NCBI GenBank assembly: GCA_910574865.1
Contig: CAJTDN010000008.1
Location: forward strand, 124,001-188,000
Direction: 5' to 3'
Origin: Lachnospiraceae bacterium
GTDB taxonomy: Bacteria; Bacillota; Clostridia; Lachnospirales; Lachnospiraceae
DNA: 64,000 bases
The position numbers were made by a program, and so were the translations under genes. The notes beneath the pieces are model-generated. The model was not told where the DNA came from and did not search any database. It saw only the letters and a program-made list of their open reading frames with translations. This document shows, in pieces, positions 53,817 through 63,041 of the stretch (position 1 is its first letter; each line of letters starts with the position of its first letter).

Positions 53817-54851
53817 CTAACAATGTTCCAGCACGATCGCGTGCGCAATTCCCGGCACACTTGATCCCTCGTTAAAACTGACCGTTGACATCAATGCCCC
53901 GGTCGGCACGAACAGCACCCGCTTCCACTCTCCCTTTTGGATCTTCGGCAATATATACGACGCCAGCGTCACCGCCGCACAGCCGCAGCCGCTTCCCCCG
54001 GCATGCGTGTCCTGGCTCTTCTGGTCAAAAATCGTCATGCCGCAGTCCATGTGTCTCGACGCGACGTCATACCCCCTCTCATTCATCAAGTCTATCAAAA
54101 TGTCCCGCCCGACATATCCCAGGTCCCCGGTGACGATACGGTCATAATAGTCCGGCTTCCTCTTGAAATCGGAAAGGTTCTGGATAATTGTGTCCCTCGC
54201 GGCCGGAGCCATGCAGGCTCCCATGTTTTGCGAATCCTTCAATCCATAATCCACGATTTTCCCAATCGTCACGCCCGAGATTCGGACATGGCCCTTTTTC
54301 TTCCCGACCAGGAAAGCCCCGCTCGCCGTCACCGTCCATTGGGCGGACGGCGGCCGTTGGTTCGCATATCCAAGAGGAAAACGAAACTCCTTCTCCGCGC
54401 TCCCGAAGTGGCTCGACGTCACCGCCAACGAAAGGTCGGCATAATCCGCCGCCACGCTCATCGCCGCGAGCGCCAACGCCTCCCCGGAAGTGGAGCATGC
54501 CCCGAATAACCCGAACATGGGAATCTGCAAGGCCTCCACGCCAATCGAAGTGGCGATCCCCTGCCGGAGCAAGTCTCCGCCATACAAAAAACGCACGTCC
54601 CCCGGTTCCACCTTCGCCTTCCCCATCGCCAGCACGCAGGCTTCCTTTTGCATGTTGCTCTCCGCTTCCTCCCACGTCTTCGCGCCGAACAGGTCGTCCT
54701 GTCCGGTCACGTCGAACAGTTTTCCCAACGGTCCCTCCGACTCCTTCTTACCTGCAATCGAACCCGCGCTGATAAGAAACGGAGCCACCGCGAAACAGAT
54801 GCTCTGTTTCCCCGCCATCTGCTTTTTTTCTTGTTCTTTCTCCTGTTCCAT
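53817..54851 (-). CDS. spoVAD: Stage V sporulation protein AD
   Basis: A 344-residue, thiolase-fold protein that binds dipicolinic acid on the inner spore membrane. Visible motifs are AGSIAGKKESEGPLGKLFD, FGLFGACSTSGEALALAAM, TSSHFGSAEKEFRFPLGYANQRPPSAQWTVT, and the C-terminal FVPTGALMSTVSFNEGSSVPGIAHAIVLE. Presence of spoVA genes indicates an endospore former. In most genomes spoVAC lies directly upstream on the same strand; here it is divergent. Confidence 0.95.
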   Translation of the reverse strand: MEQEKEQEKKQMAGKQSICFAVAPFLISAGSIAGKKESEGPLGKLFDVTGQDDLFGAKTWEEAESNMQKEACVLAMGKAKVEPGDVRFLYGGDLLRQGIATSIGVEALQIPMFGLFGACSTSGEALALAAMSVAADYADLSLAVTSSHFGSAEKEFRFPLGYANQRPPSAQWTVTASGAFLVGKKKGHVRISGVTIGKIVDYGLKDSQNMGACMAPAARDTIIQNLSDFKRKPDYYDRIVTGDLGYVGRDILIDLMNERGYDVASRHMDCGMTIFDQKSQDTHAGGSGCGCAAVTLASYILPKIQKGEWKRVLFVPTGALMSTVSFNEGSSVPGIAHAIVLEHC

Positions 54852-55060
54852 CCTTCACCCCGTTCCGCCGCCATTGCTGCTTTCATCACATAACGCGGCA
54901 TTTTTCATTATTTCTTTATGCGGCTGTGCGCATCCTCGTATGCCACGGGGCAAATATCTTTGCTCCGCAGTATAACTTATGAATCGTTGCAACCCACGGA
55001 AAATAGTATGACAAGGATTGGGCGAAAATATTCCCTTGATAAGAACACCATTGAAAATGA

Positions 55061-55091
55061 TGCATATTTTTCTGAATTATTCCGAATACTA
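55061..55091 (+). promoter_or_regulatory. Possible SigG-type promoter of spoVAC
   Basis: TGCATA (55061-55066) and AATACTA (55085-55091) with an 18-base spacer resemble the forespore SigG consensus (-35 gHATR, -10 CATnnTA), about 140 bases before spoVAC. The first -10 base differs. Confidence 0.35.
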
Positions 55092-55233
55092 TTCGCCATG
55101 AATACGCTGACCGTCATCGCGCACTTTGCATGGTACGCTCCCAATTCATTTAAGACGGCCATAGCGACACACGATTACAACTTTACAGTATCACGGCATT
55201 ACATTACTAATTATATGAACGAGGTGAACATTC

Positions 55234-55746
55234 ATGGAAAAGAACGTCACGAACGAAACGTCACGAAATGAAATCGCACGAAATGAAATGGAAAAGAAAA
55301 AAAAGGAACAGCGGTACGAATCCTACGTCAAGCAAAAAACGCCCGTACACAAATTATTGCCGGACATGGCAAAGGCATTCTTAGTTGGCGGGATCATTTG
55401 CACGGTCGGACAATGCATTTACAATTTCTGCCAATTCCAGAACTTGTCCAAGGACGAATGCAGCGGCTGGACTTCCATGCTCCTGGTTCTCATAAGCGTC
55501 GTCCTGACCGGCATCAACGTGTACCCCTCCATCGCCAAGTGGGGCGGTGCCGGCGCGCTCGTGCCCATCACGGGATTCGCCAACTCCGTGGCCTCCCCGG
55601 CCATCGAATACAAAAAGGAGGGTCAGGTTTTCGGAATCGGGTGCAAAATATTCACCATTGCCGGGCCGGTCATATTGTACGGGGTGTTTACCAGCTGGGT
55701 GCTGGGATTACTGTATTGGCTCGGAGGGATACTAGGTATCATTTGA
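55234..55746 (+). CDS. spoVAC: Stage V sporulation protein AC
   Basis: A 170-residue membrane protein. The N-terminal 35 residues are Lys/Glu/Asn-rich, then YESYVKQKTPVHKLLPDMAKAFLVGGIICTVGQC and TSMLLVLISVVLTGINVYPSIAKWGGAGALVPITGF are typical of SpoVAC, the mechanosensitive channel component of the DPA transporter. It is on the plus strand, 383 bp from and divergent to spoVAD. AGGTG lies upstream of the ATG. The stop codon is part of a long palindrome. Confidence 0.93.
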   Translation: MEKNVTNETSRNEIARNEMEKKKKEQRYESYVKQKTPVHKLLPDMAKAFLVGGIICTVGQCIYNFCQFQNLSKDECSGWTSMLLVLISVVLTGINVYPSIAKWGGAGALVPITGFANSVASPAIEYKKEGQVFGIGCKIFTIAGPVILYGVFTSWVLGLLYWLGGILGII

Positions 55747-55789: not shown

Positions 55790-55881
55790 ATTTGACCCCA
55801 AAAACAAAAAATAAATTGTAATTTTCTGGAAAATAAGATAAAATATAAAAGGAGCGTAAAATGCATGAACTTTTTTATCGT

Positions 55882-55980
55882 AAAAAGAAAAAGGCTTTAT
55901 ACAGCCTCTTTCTTTCTGCACCATGCAGAGTCTTTCGACGATTACGGTTAAACCTTATTTGCACTCGTCTTGTTAATTCA
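55882..55980 (-). ncRNA. tracrRNA of the type II-A CRISPR system
   Basis: Read on the minus strand: the anti-repeat AAUUAACAAGAC pairs perfectly with repeat bases 9-20 (GUCUUGUUAAUU), followed by a bulge and a lower stem CAAAU with GUUUG of the repeat 5' end (one G-U). The conserved nexus AAUAAGGUUUAACCGU follows, then small hairpins GUC-GAAA-GAC and UCUGCA-UGG-UGCAGA, and a terminator AGGCU-GUAUAA-AGCCU with a U-rich tail. The length is about 99 nt. It is divergent from cas9, as in Streptococcus type II-A loci, and is needed for crRNA maturation and Cas9 guide binding. Confidence 0.9.
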
Positions 55981-55986
55981 GGATTT

Positions 55987-56016
55987 ATAATAACATTCAA
56001 TGGACGGACTTGTCAA
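55987..56016 (-). promoter_or_regulatory. Promoter of tracrRNA
   Basis: On the minus strand TTGACA (56016-56011) and TATTAT (55992-55987) are 18 bases apart, placing the start near 55980, just before the anti-repeat. The -35 box overlaps that of the cas9 promoter on the other strand. Confidence 0.75.
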
Positions 56017-56066: not shown

Positions 56067-59000
56067 ATGAAGGACAAAGAATATTATTTGGGGTTGGATA
56101 TGGGAACTGCTTCTGTAGGTTGGGCCGTCACGGATGAAAACTATCACCTTATTCAGAAAAAAGGAAAAGACTTATGGGGAATCCGAGAGTTTGAAGAAGC
56201 CTTAACTGCAGTTGACCGACGTACAAAACGTACCAGCAGGCGGAGACGTCAAAGAGAAACGGCCAGAATAGGCCTATTAAAAGAATATTTTCACGACGCG
56301 ATTACCCAGAAAGATGAAATGTTCTACTCAAGATTGGAAAACAGCAAGTACCATATCGAAGACAAGGATGAAAACGTAAGATATAAGAACGTTCTTTTTT
56401 GTGATGCAGATTATACGGACAAAGACTATTTCAAAGAATTTCCTACCATCTTCCATCTAAGAAAGGCTCTTCTTGCCAGCCCCGACACTCATGCCGTAAG
56501 GCAAGACATACGATTGGTATACTTAGCTTTGCTAAACATGTTTAAACATAGGGGACATTTCCTCAATACTTCCTTGTCGGAAGACGGCGGCAATCGAAGA
56601 CTCAGCGAGGCTTATACAGATTTGCGCAATATGCTCATCGAGGAACTGGGAATATCTTTCCCCGAAGCAAACAGTGACCAAATGCTGGACATTCTCACGA
56701 ACAAAGAACTTTCCCGAACAAGAAAAAAGGAAGAACTCGCCAAACTGTTAGAAATTGAACGAAAAGATAAATATAAGATGGAATTCGTAAAAGCAATTTG
56801 CGGGTTAAAGGCAAATGCCAAGCTTCTTTTCGAAAATTTCGAAGCGGATGGAAATGAAAAAATAGAAATCTGCTTCGCAGAGTATGGATATGAAGAAAAG
56901 GCCGCCGACATTTCTGCGACTCTGGGCGAAACATATTATGGCGTGGTAGAATTACTAAAAGAAATTTACGATATTTGTACATTGGCAAATATCATGAAGG
57001 GATATTCCTATTTATCAGAAGCAAGGGTCGCTGAATACGAAAAACACGGTACGGATTTAAAAATTTTAAAAAGAACGCTCAAACGATATAGGACAATAAA
57101 AGAATATAATAATTTTTTTAGGGAACACAAAGAAGGTACTTATTGCGCTTATATCGGTTCCGTAAATTCCAAAAAGAAATTGAGAAGGAACATAAAGGAA
57201 CGCAAACAAGATGATTTATACAAATCCATAAAACGCCTATTAAGAGGGTTACCCGAAAGCGATACTGACGTGGCATATATTTTGGGCGAATTGGACAAAG
57301 GTAGTTTTTTACCCAAACAACTGACTCCGTCCAATGGAGTTATTCCCAACCAGGTACATATAAAAGAAATGAAGAAAATTTTAGAAAACGCCGAGACCTA
57401 TCTTCCTTTCCTAAAAGAACGGGACGAGTATGGGCTGACCATAAGCGAACGAATACTAAAATTATTTTCTTTCCAGATTCCTTACTATATAGGCCCTACC
57501 ACGGAAAAAAGCAAAACCGGCTGGGTCATTCGGAAAGCTCCCGGCCCGATTTTACCATGGAACATCGAAGAAAAAATTGATGTCAAAAAAACATCGGAAG
57601 AATTTGTTTCAAAAATGGTTCGGAGATGCTCCTACATTAACGGGGAAAAAGTTCTGCCCAAAGCTTCCTTGCTTTATGAAAGCTTTTGCGTGTTAAATGA
57701 AATCAACACCATTTCCATTGACGGAGAACGGATTCCCGTGTCCCTAAAGCAAGGCATTTATACCGCCCTATACAAAAAAGGCAAAAAAGTAACCCGAAAG
57801 CAACTGGTGAACTATTTACGCGCCCAAGGAGCTCTAAGCGATGAATCGCAACTTTCCGGAATTGACGTGACGCCAAATAACACGCTCTCCACTTATGGTA
57901 AATTTAAAGCAATACTAGGTGAAAAAATAGACGAAGACGACGGGAAACAAATGGTTGAAAACATTGTTTTCTGGTGTACGATATATGGCGATTCCAAGCG
58001 ATTTTTAAGAGAAACTTTGAGCGAACACTATGGGAATGTGTTATCAGCAGAACAGATAAAAAGAATCGCAGGCATCAAATTCAAGGATTGGGGTCGATTG
58101 TCAAAAGCGTTTTTGACATTGCCCGGCTGTCAAAAATCAATCGGGGAAAATACTTCCTTGATACGCATGATGTGGGAAACTAATTTCAATTTAATGGAGC
58201 TTTTAAACCATCCCGACTATTCCTACCATGAAGAACTTGATGCAAGACAAGAAAACGGACTCAAGCCACTTTCACAATTGCAGGCAGAAGATTTGGACGA
58301 ATTTTCCTTCTCGGCCCCGGTCAAGAGAATGGTTTGGCAAACGTTACTTGTCATCCGGGAATTAGAAAACGTACTGGGTGCACCGCCCAAACGTCTATTT
58401 GTTGAAATGACGAGGAAACCTGATGACAAGAAGGGACGTACCATTACCAGAAAGCAAAAATTTCTGAATTTATATCATAATATAGATAAAGAAATAAAAG
58501 ACTGGAAGGAAGAAATCGAGAAGGCAGATGCCAACGGTACTTTAAAAAGCAAGAAAATGTATTTGTATTTTACACAAATGGGACGATGCATGTATACCGG
58601 CGAAGAAATTGAATTATCCCAGCTTTTTAATGATAATATATATGACATAGACCACATATATCCAAGACATTTTGTTAAAGATGACAATCTGGATAACAAT
58701 TTGGTATTGGTCAAGAAAACTGTAAATGCGCATAAAAGTGATATTTATCCTTTAGAAGCTTCCATTTATGAAACACAAAAAGAAAATTGGAAGAGACTTT
58801 ACCACGCCAATTTGATTACGGAAGAAAAGTATAAACGCTTAATGGGAAGAACCCCCTTTACGGACGAACAAAAAGCTGATTTTATTGCCAGACAGCTTGT
58901 AGAAACAAGACAAGGAACAAAAGGCGTGACGGACATTTTAAAAGATTTGCTGCCGAACACGACAATCGTATATTCAAAAGCCTCCAACGTGTCTGAATTC

Positions 59001-59939
59001 AGACAAAAACGAGATTTGATTAAATGCAGAAGCATAAACGAGTTCCACCATGCGCAAGATGCCTACTTAAATATTGTTGTCGGCAACGTATACTATGTGA
59101 AATTTACACAAAATCCGCTCCATTTTATACAGAAAGAATATTCCCGAAACGCCACGCAATATCAATATAATCTCAGCCGGATGTTTGACCGTGATGTCGT
59201 GAGGGGCAATGAAACGGCATGGATCGGTTCTAAAAATGACAAAACTCCGGGCACAATCGCAACAGTCAAAAAAATGATGGCGAAAAACACCCCCTTGATG
59301 ACAAGGCGGAATTTTGAAGGGCATGGCGGCATTGCCGACGAGACCCTATATGGTGCCCAAAAGGCGACGGCCGAGAAGTATATTCCATTAAAGAGTTCGG
59401 ACACAAAACTGGCTGATGTCACGAAATACGGCGGTTTTAGCAGTGTTTCAACGGCATATTTCTTTTTGGTCGAACACGGGACCGCAAACAAAAGAACACG
59501 GACGTTGGAAACCGTGCCTATTTATATGAAAGAAAAAATAAACGACAAGGAGGAACTCTTATTAAAATATTGCACGGACGTATTAAAACTGACAAACCCA
59601 TGCATCCGATTGCCAAAAATCAAACTGCAATCCCTGATAAAAAAAGATGGCTATTTCATGCATATTTCAGGGAAGACCGGCAATCAAATCGCACTTCGGA
59701 ATGCGGTGAATCTTTGCTTGCGGCAGGAATGGATTTCCTATATCCTAAAGTTGGAAAAGCATCAAGATTCAGGTGGCAACTGCCTCTGCACGGAAAAAAC
59801 ATTGAGCTTTACTTATTGCTGCTCAACAAACATAAAAACAGCATATATGCAAAACGTCCCAATCCGTTTGGCGAAAAACTTGCCGCCTCGTTGGAGAAAT
59901 TTAAAGGCCTGGCTCTTTCGGAACAATGTGAAGTGCTGA
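56067..59939 (+). CDS. cas9: CRISPR-associated endonuclease Cas9 (type II-A), frameshifted near the 3' end
   Basis: An RNA-guided DNA endonuclease. RuvC I carries Asp11 (YLGLDMGTASVGWAV), the Arg-rich bridge helix is RRTKRTSRRRRQRETARIG, RuvC II has Glu780 (LFVEMTRKP), HNH has His863 (DIDHIYPRHF) with NNLVLVKK, and RuvC III has His995 and Asp998 (HHAQDAYLN). All catalytic residues are intact. The frame as it stands gives 1290 residues, but from about codon 1244 its last 46 residues are unrelated, because a one-base loss in the A-run at 59794-59799 shifts the frame. The true C-terminus continues in another frame to 60121, giving about 1351 residues if repaired. As read, most of the PAM-interacting domain end is missing. 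Base composition is visibly lower in GC than in neighbouring genes, suggesting transfer. Confidence 0.9.
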   Translation: MKDKEYYLGLDMGTASVGWAVTDENYHLIQKKGKDLWGIREFEEALTAVDRRTKRTSRRRRQRETARIGLLKEYFHDAITQKDEMFYSRLENSKYHIEDKDENVRYKNVLFCDADYTDKDYFKEFPTIFHLRKALLASPDTHAVRQDIRLVYLALLNMFKHRGHFLNTSLSEDGGNRRLSEAYTDLRNMLIEELGISFPEANSDQMLDILTNKELSRTRKKEELAKLLEIERKDKYKMEFVKAICGLKANAKLLFENFEADGNEKIEICFAEYGYEEKAADISATLGETYYGVVELLKEIYDICTLANIMKGYSYLSEARVAEYEKHGTDLKILKRTLKRYRTIKEYNNFFREHKEGTYCAYIGSVNSKKKLRRNIKERKQDDLYKSIKRLLRGLPESDTDVAYILGELDKGSFLPKQLTPSNGVIPNQVHIKEMKKILENAETYLPFLKERDEYGLTISERILKLFSFQIPYYIGPTTEKSKTGWVIRKAPGPILPWNIEEKIDVKKTSEEFVSKMVRRCSYINGEKVLPKASLLYESFCVLNEINTISIDGERIPVSLKQGIYTALYKKGKKVTRKQLVNYLRAQGALSDESQLSGIDVTPNNTLSTYGKFKAILGEKIDEDDGKQMVENIVFWCTIYGDSKRFLRETLSEHYGNVLSAEQIKRIAGIKFKDWGRLSKAFLTLPGCQKSIGENTSLIRMMWETNFNLMELLNHPDYSYHEELDARQENGLKPLSQLQAEDLDEFSFSAPVKRMVWQTLLVIRELENVLGAPPKRLFVEMTRKPDDKKGRTITRKQKFLNLYHNIDKEIKDWKEEIEKADANGTLKSKKMYLYFTQMGRCMYTGEEIELSQLFNDNIYDIDHIYPRHFVKDDNLDNNLVLVKKTVNAHKSDIYPLEASIYETQKENWKRLYHANLITEEKYKRLMGRTPFTDEQKADFIARQLVETRQGTKGVTDILKDLLPNTTIVYSKASNVSEFRQKRDLIKCRSINEFHHAQDAYLNIVVGNVYYVKFTQNPLHFIQKEYSRNATQYQYNLSRMFDRDVVRGNETAWIGSKNDKTPGTIATVKKMMAKNTPLMTRRNFEGHGGIADETLYGAQKATAEKYIPLKSSDTKLADVTKYGGFSSVSTAYFFLVEHGTANKRTRTLETVPIYMKEKINDKEELLLKYCTDVLKLTNPCIRLPKIKLQSLIKKDGYFMHISGKTGNQIALRNAVNLCLRQEWISYILKLEKHQDSGGNCLCTEKTLSFTYCCSTNIKTAYMQNVPIRLAKNLPPRWRNLKAWLFRNNVKC

Positions 59940-60121
59940 ACCAGATACTACGCCTGACATCAATCGGCATCACATGCGCCGATTTGACCTTGTTGGGTGA
60001 ATCGCCAAACAGCGGCAAAATGCTCATGTCAAAAAACATCGGCAAGTCGAAGGAATTATTGTTGCTTAATCAATCGGTTACCGGAATTTTCGAAAGCCGT
60101 ATTGATTTACTGACGGTATGA
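59798..60121 (+). pseudogene. cas9: Displaced C-terminal part of Cas9 (frame shifted by one base)
   Basis: Read from AAC at 59798, this frame gives NIELYLLLLNKHKNSIYAKR followed by PNPFGEKL and continues to a stop at 60121, matching the C-terminal PAM-interacting region of type II-A Cas9. Adding one A to the run at 59794-59799 joins it in frame to the upstream part as ...TEK-NIELY.... Its stop overlaps the cas1 start (ATGA at 60118-60121), the same overlap style as the other cas junctions, supporting this as the original cas9 end. Confidence 0.9.
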
Positions 60122-60990
60122 GCTGGCGCACGGTGGTCATAGCGAGCAGTGCAAAGTTAGATTACCAATTAGGTTTTCTGGTGATTCGTAAGGAGGACAC
60201 AGTAAAAATACACCTTGGCGAGATTTCCATGCTGATTGTCGAAAACACTTCCGTCTCCTTAACCGCAGCATTGTTGAGCGAATTGACCAAAAAGAAAATA
60301 AAAGTAATCTTCTGTGACGAAAAAAGGAATCCTTCTTCCGAATTGGTTTCTTATTACGGCTGTCATGACACCAGTTCAAAAATCCGCAGGCAACTAAATT
60401 GGACAGAAGATGCCAAAGCAAGCATATGGACAAATATTGTTCGCGAAAAAATTCACAAGCAAGCAGAACTCCTTGAAAGGTACCGCCTCGCCGAATCTGC
60501 AATGCTATACAAATACATGGACGAAGTACGGCCCAACGATGACTCCAACCGGGAAGGTCATGCAGCGAAAGTGTACTTTAACGCCTTATTTGGCAAGGAT
60601 TTTACCAGAAGTTTAGAAAACAGTACGAATGCGGCACTTAACTATGGTTATGGAATCATTTTGTCCGCCTTCAACCGTGAAATCGTTGCGAATGGATACA
60701 TCACGCAACTGGGATTGTTCCATGACAACATGTTCAATCAATTCAACCTGGGTTCCGACCTTATGGAACCCTTCCGCGTCCTGGTGGATTGCGCCGTAAA
60801 AAACATGATGCCGCAAAAATTTGAACATGAAGAAAAGGTTACGATTTTAAAAATACTACAACAAGAAGTTCGTATCGGAAACAGAAGGGAATACGTCAAT
60901 AATGCCATTAAAATATATTGCCGGAGTGTTTTTGACGCACTTAACGAAAACGATGCGTTATTGATAAAATTTTACGAAAATGAGTTATAG
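60118..60990 (+). CDS. cas1: CRISPR-associated integrase Cas1 (type II)
   Basis: A 290-residue metal-dependent integrase that, with Cas2, inserts new spacers. The N-terminal beta domain ([20 protein letters not shown]...[14 protein letters not shown]) is followed by the catalytic helical domain with probable metal ligands Glu146 ([10 protein letters not shown]), His202 (GLFHDN) and Glu217 ([10 protein letters not shown]). Its length is typical of type II Cas1. It overlaps the restored cas9 end by 4 bp and cas2 by 11 bp. Confidence 0.95.
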
Positions 60991-61300
60991 ATATATGCGA
61001 ATCATTGTATTTTTTGACCTTCCTACATTAACAGCAAAAGACAAAAAAGAATATCGAAATTTCAGAAAACACTTGATAAAATCAGGTTTTTTAATGATGC
61101 AAGAATCCGTATATTGCAAATTAGTACAAAATACTACCGCCGCCGATGCAATGATTGACAATTTGAAGAAAAACAAGCCCGACAAAGGACTTGTTCAACT
61201 ACTAAAAGTAACGGAAAAACAATATGCGAAAATGGAATTCGTCGTCGGCAAAACCACCTCAAACGTTTTAGATTCTGATGAAAGGCTGGTCATCCTATGA
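60980..61300 (+). CDS. cas2: CRISPR-associated protein Cas2
   Basis: A 106-residue ferredoxin-fold protein ([23 protein letters not shown], with the conserved Asp in FFDLP) that bridges two Cas1 dimers in the spacer-integration complex. The ATG at 60980 overlaps cas1 by 11 bp. An internal ATG (MRIIVFF, 60995) after the cas1 stop is a possible alternative start. Confidence 0.95.
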
Positions 61301-61989
61301 ACCTGGCATACCCAAGCTACAATGTTATGCTGACCTTATGTGAAAACAAAATAACTGTTTTATCTATTGAAAATCCGCAGGCATATTCCCAAATTCTTTC
61401 TGATATTTGGAACCAGTGCCAAGGTGGCGATGGAGAATTTATCTTGTCCCATCATGCGACAATAAAAAGCATCTCCAAAGAAATCGCATGTATTTTTAAT
61501 CCCTTTGTTCTGAATAGTGGAGATAAAAAAATTCTCAACAAACTCTACTCCATACTGCAGGAGCAAACAAACGAATGGCTCATCCATGAAAGCGCCTCAT
61601 TAAACAGAAACATCATCGATTTTTTTGACAAATTATCGCAACACGTTCCGTATGCCTTGGAGTATAACTTAAATTTAGATATTGTGAATTTATTTAAGTC
61701 GTATGATGTAAAACCCGAAAATTTTGGTGAAAGCTTGTTAGAGAGAATCGTCGAATATTTGAGAATCCAAAGCCAACTGTGCAATCTCAAAATATTTGTG
61801 TTTATCTCTTTAAAACAATATTTAACAACTGACGAGCTTAAACTGTTATATGAATTTGTCTTTTATGAGAAAATACACCTAATCATCATCGAACCCATAC
61901 ATTCACCTCAAATTTATGGAGAAAAAGGTTGCATTATTGATAAAGACTTGTGTATAATTGATATTGACGAATTAACACCACTTTCGTAA
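61297..61989 (+). CDS. csn2: Csn2-family adaptation protein (type II-A)
   Basis: A 230-residue protein following cas2 with a 4-bp overlap (ATGA). In type II-A loci Csn2 forms a DNA-encircling tetramer needed for spacer acquisition. This one starts [37 protein letters not shown] and contains the alpha/beta core later ([25 protein letters not shown], then HLIIIEP). Sequence similarity within the family is low, so assignment rests on position, size and these patterns. Its 3' end carries the probable array promoter. Confidence 0.88.
61929..61958 (+). promoter_or_regulatory. Probable promoter of the CRISPR array inside csn2
   Basis: TTGCAT (61929-61934) and a perfect TATAAT (61953-61958) are 18 bases apart. 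Transcription would start about 65 bases before the first repeat. As only 43 bases separate csn2 from the array, the promoter must lie within csn2. Confidence 0.6.
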
Positions 61990-62025
61990 AGTGGTATGCT
62001 TGGTGAGAACCTCACGTTTCGCCTG

Positions 62026-62032: not shown

Positions 62033-62656
62033 GTTTGAGAGTCTTGTTAATTTGTAAGGGAATGAAGCAAAATCAAGGTTTTTCATGGATTGACCGTCGT
62101 TTGAGAGTCTTGTTAATTTGTAAGGGAATGAAGCGATTGGAGCGCATACACGCTATGGCGAAAGTTTGAGAGTCTTGTTAATTTGTAAGGGAATGAAGCC
62201 CTATCACTGATGAAGAGTTAAACTATATAGTTTGAGAGTCTTGTTAATTTGTAAGGGAATGAAGCATTTATGGAACATTCCGTAGTTCTGTAAGGTTTGA
62301 GAGTCTTGTTAATTTGTAAGGGAATGAAGCGAACTAAAGACAGCGTATCTTATGCGACAGTTTGAGAGTCTTGTTAATTTGTAAGGGAATGAAGCTGGTC
62401 AAAATCTGCATTGTATCTGCGCCAGTTTGAGAGTCTTGTTAATTTGTAAGGGAATGAAGCTCAAAATCTTCGATAGTTTTTGTTTCATTGTTTGAGAGTC
62501 TTGTTAATTTGTAAGGGAATGAAGCTTCTGTTTTGTAAAAAATTTGTGTCCCGCAGTTTGAGAGTCTTGTTAATTTGTAAGGGAATGAAGCAAACATATG
62601 TCAACTCGCGCTCCTGAATAGTTTGAGAGTCTTGTTAATTTGTAAGGGAATGAAGC
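62033..62656 (+). CRISPR. CRISPR array, ten 36-bp repeats and nine spacers
   Basis: Repeats start at 62033, 62099, 62164, 62230, 62295, 62360, 62425, 62490, 62556 and 62621. Each is 36 bases, beginning GTTTGAGAGTCTTGTTAATT and ending GGGAATGAAGC, and I see no differences between copies, even at the trailer end. Spacers are 29 or 30 bases and all differ. The leader side is at the csn2 end. The repeat pairs with the tracrRNA at 55.9 kb, tying the array to this cas operon. Confidence 0.98.
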
Positions 62657-62776: not shown

Positions 62777-62974
62777 AGCGTCGGTGTACAAAAGGCAATA
62801 CGGTCGATGAAGGGCATATTTCCCCTCTTTCATCGTTACTTTCACTCCGCGTACGTCCTTGTACGCGTCGCTTAAGTGCCTTGAAAGAGGGGAAATATGC
62901 CTCTTCACGACTCTGCGACCCCACCCATGGGGATTTCAAGGGTTGAGGCGCGTTGCCTTCTGTACACCGACGCT
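62777..62974. mobile_element. Palindromic MITE-like element of 198 bp
   Basis: Terminal inverted repeats AGCGTCGGTGTACAAAAGGC (62777) and GCCTTCTGTACACCGACGCT (62974 end) match except one base. Inside, GAAGGGCATATTTCCCCTCT and its near-inverse at about 62880-62912 form a second stem. No coding frame is present. The right end is repeated at 1788-1807. I see no clear target-site duplication. It lies about 120 bases beyond the CRISPR array and could fold into a strong hairpin. Confidence 0.7.
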
Positions 62975-63041
62975 TAAATGCTATTATATAATTGTCCAAA
63001 GAGAACAAGGACAATAACCCGGAAGGGAGAAAGGAGAACAC

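What the first reader, a model, noticed from the sequence alone, without database searches (positions are those of the whole stretch)
59790..59802. One-base frameshift in an A-run removes the end of the Cas9 PAM-interacting domain
The Cas9 frame is coherent to ...CTEK (59798), then turns into unrelated residues and stops at 59939. The family-like C-terminus (NIELYLLLLNKHKNSIYAKR...) continues in the frame one base back and stops at 60121, exactly overlapping the cas1 start. Adding one A to the six-A run at 59794-59799 restores about 1351 residues. All RuvC and HNH residues are intact, so the locus may be only recently broken, or still expressed by slippage, or simply mis-sequenced.
Basis: partly seen in the sequence, partly recalled or inferred. 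Interest (0 to 1): 0.75.

Follow-up and report, generated by a model that had tools for sequence, protein, structure and literature searches.

The report
Frameshifted Cas9 in a bacterial CRISPR locus
A bacterium's Cas9 gene has slipped out of frame near its end, so the protein loses much of the part that recognises targets and the CRISPR system is probably switched off, an ordinary kind of gene loss; the same genome carries mobile elements that match one of its CRISPR spacers.

Summary
The frameshift is real in the given sequence. The cas9 frame (56067-59939, 1290 aa) follows Cas9 up to the A-run at 59794-59799. The last 107 residues of the PAM-interacting domain lie in the next frame, ending at 60121 and overlapping cas1. 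Pfam splits the domain there: profile positions 1-147 in one frame, 164-264 in the other. Of 33 related loci examined, 29 read through in one frame, three are cut by contig ends, and one, same genus, is interrupted by a multi-copy element just before the same tail. The tail shows no clear decay, so the break is recent if real. An assembly error is not excluded, but none of 55 comparable genes in the genome shows a frame break. A six-A run is short for slippage. New: spacer 2 matches a relaxase gene of three mobile elements in the same genome, two exactly, but the flanks differ from those of two viral protospacers, so self-targeting is unproven. Best reading: a natural loss-of-function cas9 allele, with precedents in Mycoplasma gallisepticum (PI-domain frameshift) and M. 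arthritidis (frameshift with self-matching spacer).

The parts
55881..56000 (-). likely tracrRNA region upstream of cas9, with anti-repeat and terminator-like hairpin plus T-run
   Evidence: 12-base core GTCTTGTTAATT of the repeat occurs in the window only here (55967) and in the ten repeats; hairpin and T-run in the fold. The duplex energy (-21.5) is not exceptional: the five best of 3,530 control segments reach -26.3 to -28.1, so the call rests on position and the 12-base core
56067..59939 (+). cas9 first frame, 1290 aa: REC, HNH, RuvC and the first half of the PI domain, then about 46 out-of-frame residues
   Evidence: Cas9_REC, HNH_4, Cas9_RuvC, Cas9_PI 1-147/265; bridge helix below its cut-off; TIGR01865 positions 1-971 of 1070
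59794..59799 (+). six-A run where the family frame passes to the next frame (site of the lesion)
59798..60121 (+). orphan end of the PI domain (107 aa) in the second frame, stop overlapping cas1 start
   Evidence: PF16595 164-264/265, E 8.4e-26
60118..60990 (+). cas1, open and complete
   Evidence: TIGR03639, type II Cas1
60980..61300 (+). cas2, open and complete
   Evidence: TIGR01573
61297..61989 (+). csn2, open and complete (type II-A marker)
   Evidence: TIGR01866
61990..62032 (+). leader, ending in ATTTGAG before the first repeat
62033..62656 (+). CRISPR array: ten identical 36-base repeats, nine spacers of 29-30 bases
62135..62163 (+). spacer 2, identical to 29 bases of a relaxase gene at two places in the same genome and 28/29 at a third

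Best explanation
A recently arisen natural loss-of-function allele of a type II-A cas9. A one-base shift in an A-run removes the last 107 residues of the PAM-interacting domain and replaces them with about 46 unrelated ones (shown in the sequence). The truncated protein should keep its nuclease domains and guide-binding lobe but fail to read the PAM, so it should neither cut invaders nor pick PAM-flanked DNA for new spacers (inferred from Cas9 biology). The early stop also leaves ribosomes 178 bases short of the cas1 start, which the second frame overlaps, so cas1-cas2-csn2 translation may fall as well (inferred). The array is then a frozen record, and the genome can carry mobile elements that match it.
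For: Frame change located by homology. 29 of 33 examined relatives read through in one frame. Tail identity to five outgroups is close to that of intact L012: higher for L004 (41.5 vs 38.7) and L007 (43.0 vs 42.1), lower for L003 (43.9 vs 44.9), L005 (43.9 vs 50.5) and L008 (30.4 vs 34.6), so no clear decay. Genome control: no frame break in 55 gene comparisons. Three places carrying the spacer-2 target sit in the genome. A same-genus genome, G008, has cas9 interrupted near the same tail. Precedents: M. gallisepticum Cas9 form V3, a frameshift losing the last 120 residues within the PI domain in seven isolates (PMC11893278, passages); M. arthritidis cas9 frameshift with a self-matching spacer (PMC6882279, passages).
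Against: One sequence of one genome and no reads, so a consensus error of one base in a run cannot be ruled out. Everything else in the locus looks fit (ten identical repeats; cas1, cas2, csn2 and leader), which is what an error would also give. The self-match may lack a PAM and then says nothing about Cas9 activity.
Confidence: 0.7

Rival explanations
1. Assembly or consensus error: the living strain has an intact cas9 and the A-run is one base short only in the record.
For: Homopolymers are a common place for such errors (general knowledge); the frame on both sides is undamaged and the rest of the locus looks intact.
Against: No frame break in 55 gene comparisons with G010. From 56067 to 61990 there are 18 other A or T runs of exactly six and six of seven; the coding frames there run on across them.
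Confidence: 0.22
2. The frame is recovered by transcriptional or ribosomal slippage at the A-run, giving some full-length Cas9.
For: The frame change falls on an A-run; slippage at poly-A does rescue an interrupted gene in Citrobacter rodentium tssM, with eleven A (PMC4256274, abstract and passages).
Against: Only six A; selection against A/T runs is evident at nine in a large share of bacterial genomes (PMC1088944, abstract and passages). The downstream region folds weakly (-7.8 and -9.6 for two stretches). None of the 29 read-through relatives needs a shift here, and the seven relatives whose junction DNA was printed do not share the run as such, though L007 has six A before a T.
Confidence: 0.05
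3. cas9 was lost because the array targets integrated conjugative elements of the same genome (escape from autoimmunity, or a price for keeping the elements). This is a cause for the best explanation, not an alternative to it.
For: Spacer 2 is 29/29 at two and 28/29 at a third relaxase gene in the genome. Small contrast: both broken-cas9 genomes hold spacers matching their own genome (in G008, one 26/29 match, E 1.8e-4, and one 20-base match, E 0.026, the latter possibly chance), while two intact-cas9 genomes (G010, 7 spacers; G095, 29) show none. Deactivation or deletion of CRISPR was judged the most likely way a targeted conjugative plasmid is acquired (PMC3784566, abstract and passages).
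Against: Flanks of the self sites (TCTTCC) share nothing at +4 to +6 with the two exact viral protospacers (AAAAAT, TACAAT); the AAT lies on the opposite side in 11 of 12 relaxase sites, as if spacer 2 were inserted the wrong way round (read by eye). The PAM and the order of events are unknown. G008's 26/29 match has its mismatches on the PAM side, and G008 is listed at 8% contamination.
Confidence: 0.15

Closest known systems
Mycoplasma gallisepticum MgCas9 form V3 (PMC11893278, passages seen)
   Same: cas9 frameshift that removes the last 120 residues within the PI domain, read as loss of function
   Different: Distant host; seen in seven dated isolates, whereas here there is a single genome
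Mycoplasma arthritidis 158L3_1 cas9 frameshift with a self-matching spacer (PMC6882279, passages seen)
   Same: Disrupted cas9 offered as the reason a self-matching spacer is tolerated
   Different: Stop at residue 394; the target is a phenylalanine-tRNA ligase gene, here it is a relaxase of mobile elements
CRISPR loss on acquiring a targeted conjugative plasmid, Staphylococcus epidermidis (PMC3784566, abstract and passages seen)
   Same: Loss of CRISPR function lets a targeted conjugative element in
   Different: Shown by experiment in another system; here only co-occurrence is seen

Membership tests
Type II-A CRISPR-Cas locus | cas9 with REC, HNH, RuvC and PI domains | tested here: met
   with the PI domain split over two frames; TIGR01865
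Type II-A CRISPR-Cas locus | cas1, cas2 and csn2 downstream of cas9 | tested here: met
   (TIGR03639, TIGR01573, TIGR01866)
Type II-A CRISPR-Cas locus | repeat-spacer array with leader | tested here: met
Type II-A CRISPR-Cas locus | tracrRNA with anti-repeat | tested here: inconclusive
   unique 12-base core upstream of cas9, but duplex energy not exceptional against controls
Functional Cas9 effector | PI domain complete in the same reading frame | tested here: not met
   PF16595 1-147 in one frame, 164-264 in the other; 29 of 33 examined relatives have it in one frame
Programmed frameshift or slippage gene | slippery site conserved in relatives, with stimulating signals or a long run | tested here: not met
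   run not shared as such by seven relatives printed, six A only, weak structure, 29 of 33 relatives in one frame
Self-targeting CRISPR system | spacer matches own genome with a usable PAM | tested here: inconclusive
   match exact at two sites; flank unlike those of two viral protospacers; PAM unknown

The most novel reading that the evidence does not exclude
Repeated loss of the same Cas9 tail in one genus (a frameshift here, an element insertion in G008) under pressure from integrated elements that the arrays match: the break spares the guide-binding and nuclease parts and removes only PAM reading, so the cell keeps the locus and tolerates the elements.
Probability: 0.1. Interest if true: 0.5.

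Novelty: new member of a known kind. Interest (0 to 1): 0.3.

Why it matters
It is a clean case of a CRISPR-Cas9 system apparently caught soon after failing, with the other parts intact and with mobile elements it has a spacer against in the same genome. If confirmed in strains, it would help test whether conjugative elements drive cas9 loss in such bacteria. It also warns against counting this locus as active immunity or as a source of a usable Cas9.

Tried and rejected
PAM from more protospacers: 22-23-base PAM-side pieces of eight spacers (all but spacer 2) were scanned in IMG/VR; 2 of 8 hit, spacers 1 and 8, both 30/30 over the full spacer. Phage and plasmid collections gave only weak matches (best E 0.7). 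Eight spacers against 397 family genomes gave no exact match outside the own array (at most two candidates per genome were scored, and the list was cut). Spacers of the closest relative G095 gave no phage match and one partial match, 25/31, in 368 genomes. So the PAM stayed unsettled.

Autoimmunity as the main explanation was lowered after the flanks were read. Programmed frameshifting was rejected (short run, not conserved, weak structure). Anti-CRISPR genes in the mobile elements, reads, other strains of the species and a structure prediction were not tested.

Genome control mended on re-check: one search counted 57 of 57 comparisons without a second frame, but its test (90% of the query in one hit) would have passed a late break like this one, which loses 8%. 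A stricter test (hit within 30 aa of both ends, open frame at least 93%) passes 50 of 57. The other seven were read: two are antisense shadow frames, not genes, and were dropped; one has a stop only in an upstream extension of the frame; four differ in length at an end with no stop inside. That leaves 55 with no frame break seen.

Full report
Observation. The window holds a type II-A locus on the + strand: cas9 56067-59939, cas1 60118-60990, cas2 60980-61300, csn2 61297-61989 and an array 62033-62656 of ten identical repeats and nine spacers. The cas9 frame is 1290 residues. It matches Pfam Cas9_REC, HNH_4, Cas9_RuvC and positions 1-147 of the 265-position Cas9_PI profile. The frame that ends at 60121 matches positions 164-264 of the same profile (E 8.4e-26). 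The out-of-frame end has no significant match in the 11 relative loci then held, while the 107-residue tail matches 6 of the 11 at 41-55% identity. The aligned residues place the shift in the A-run 59794-59799: the 'EK' of the family motif is in the first frame and the following 'N' in the second, overlapping by one base.

Relatives. A search of 397 family genomes found cas9 matches in 34, including the window's own. Of the other 33, loci were read for 29; four rows (G206, G119, G166, G267) were given no locus and were not examined. Adding L003, L006, L012 and L013, 33 loci were read. Of these, 29 run in one frame through a family-type C-terminus (L013 lacks its start); three (L191, L197, L204) are cut by a contig end; one, L006 in same-genus genome G008, is interrupted. 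In 22 of the 29 the bases after the frame are TGAG(C/T)T, as in the window's ATGA overlap with cas1; in five a cas1-like start follows within about a dozen bases; in two (L203, L207) it was not evident. L012 and L013 are near-identical in the part compared, so the 29 are not all independent. Weak matches to other cas9 types (L009-L011, two genomes) were left out.

The G008 case. Contig C80 ends soon after the residues that precede the tail. The tail (40% identical, open frame 128) is at the end of contig C77, beside frames that look like cas1, cas2 and csn2 (labelled by eye, no family search) and an array. The last 121 bases of C80 recur at the first bases of four other G008 contigs and once in C19, so a multi-copy element, probably an insertion sequence, appears to split cas9 there; the element was not assembled. 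Both breaks lie in the variable linker before the tail. With two cases this may be chance.

Real or an error? There are no reads. As a control, 557 ORFs of at least 200 aa from 901 kb of same-genus genome G010 were compared with 828 kb of the window's own genome. 61 non-overlapping targets had a best hit at 45% identity or more; four had low coverage and were dropped; the remaining 57 showed no second-frame hit. That test could miss a late break. A stricter one passed 50 of 57; of the other seven, two are antisense shadow frames and were dropped, one has a stop only in an upstream extension and four differ in length at an end without a stop inside. So no frame break was seen in 55 gene comparisons. 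The window agrees letter for letter with the genome contig, which is the same data and not independent. The tail shows no clear decay: against five outgroups it is closer than intact L012 for two and further for three, most for L005 (43.9 vs 50.5). So the break is recent, or an error. I put a real allele at about 0.7.

Slippage. Six A is short. Selection against A or T runs becomes evident at nine in a large share of bacterial genomes (PMC1088944, abstract and passages), and the tssM rescue uses eleven A (PMC4256274, abstract and passages). The downstream sequence folds weakly, the run is not shared as such by the seven relatives printed and none of the 29 relatives depends on a shift here.

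Consequences (inferred). The PI domain reads the PAM. In type II-A systems the Cas9-tracrRNA complex also chooses PAM-flanked DNA for new spacers (PMC6546361, passages). Loss of the tail should stop both interference and useful adaptation. The early stop lies 178 bases before the cas1 start, which by eye has no clear ribosome-binding site of its own, so coupled translation of cas1-cas2-csn2 may drop.

Self-matching spacer. Spacer 2 (62135-62163) is identical to 29 bases at G000:C13:51153-51181 and G000:C2:28069-28097, and 28/29 at G000:C4:44853-44881. All three lie in a 546-residue frame with the MobA/VirD2 relaxase domain (PF03432). A DUF4368-type serine recombinase was found by Pfam in the C2 stretch, TrbL_2 and PrgI in the C4 stretch; the C13 stretch has, beside the relaxase, a 146-residue recombinase-like frame by eye. 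Blocks longer than 1.8 kb are 84-91% alike between the three. I infer integrated conjugative elements, perhaps not all complete. The same 29 bases occur exactly in four of the 396 other family genomes searched and with one mismatch in two more (at most two candidates per genome scored).

Would Cas9 cut there? The 3' flanks are TCTTCCCC (two sites) and TCTTCATC (one). The two exact viral protospacers, for spacers 1 and 8, have AAAAATGA and TACAATAC. The AAT shared at +4 to +6 is absent from the self sites but present, reversed, on the other side in 11 of 12 relaxase sites (read by eye). These sites are homologous, so this counts about once. Two protospacers cannot fix a PAM, but they give no support to autoimmunity and hint that spacer 2 was inserted the wrong way round.

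A small contrast. In G008 two of eight spacers match the own genome in part: 26/29 with the mismatches on the PAM side (E 1.8e-4), and 20 PAM-side bases exact (E 0.026, possibly chance). In two intact-cas9 genomes, G010 (seven spacers) and G095 (29), no spacer matched outside the arrays at the limits used (E 1 and 0.01). Two against two is only a lead.

Known or new. cas9 loss by frameshift is known, including one in the PI domain (MgCas9 V3, PMC11893278, passages) and one beside a self-matching spacer (M. arthritidis, PMC6882279, passages). CRISPR loss on entry of a conjugative plasmid is known (PMC3784566, abstract and passages). Two searches for cas9 frameshift terms were made: the first listed 15 of 29 papers, among them these two Mycoplasma papers, the second two unrelated ones; nothing closer was seen in those listings. 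The closest solved structure by sequence is 9jwk_A (1372 residues); its organism was not shown, and FrCas9 of Faecalibaculum rodentium is a recalled guess.

Host.

Noticed in passing
L030, L031, L032 (G000:C13, C2, C4): Three related mobile-element stretches in one genome carry similar relaxase genes that match spacer 2; near the relaxase the C13 copy has a short recombinase-like frame.
   Followed up: partly
L006/L016 and L015 (G008:C80 and C77): A same-genus genome has cas9 split by a multi-copy element just before the same C-terminal tail; two of its eight spacers partly match its own contig C21.
   Followed up: partly
window 62135-62163: Spacer 2 may be inserted in the wrong orientation: the AAT seen beside the protospacers of spacers 1 and 8 lies on its opposite side.
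   Followed up: partly
L092 1323-1352: Spacer 8 matches 30/30 a viral contig, inside a minus-strand frame (1123-1629) that looks like a phage holin (label recalled, no family search).
   Followed up: no
window 62780-62980: Imperfect inverted sequence downstream of the array (GTCGGTGTAC ... GTACACCGAC), seen by eye.
   Followed up: no
window 53817-55746: SpoVAD (minus strand) and a SpoVAC/SpoVAEB-type gene (plus strand) lie near the CRISPR locus on opposite strands.
   Followed up: no
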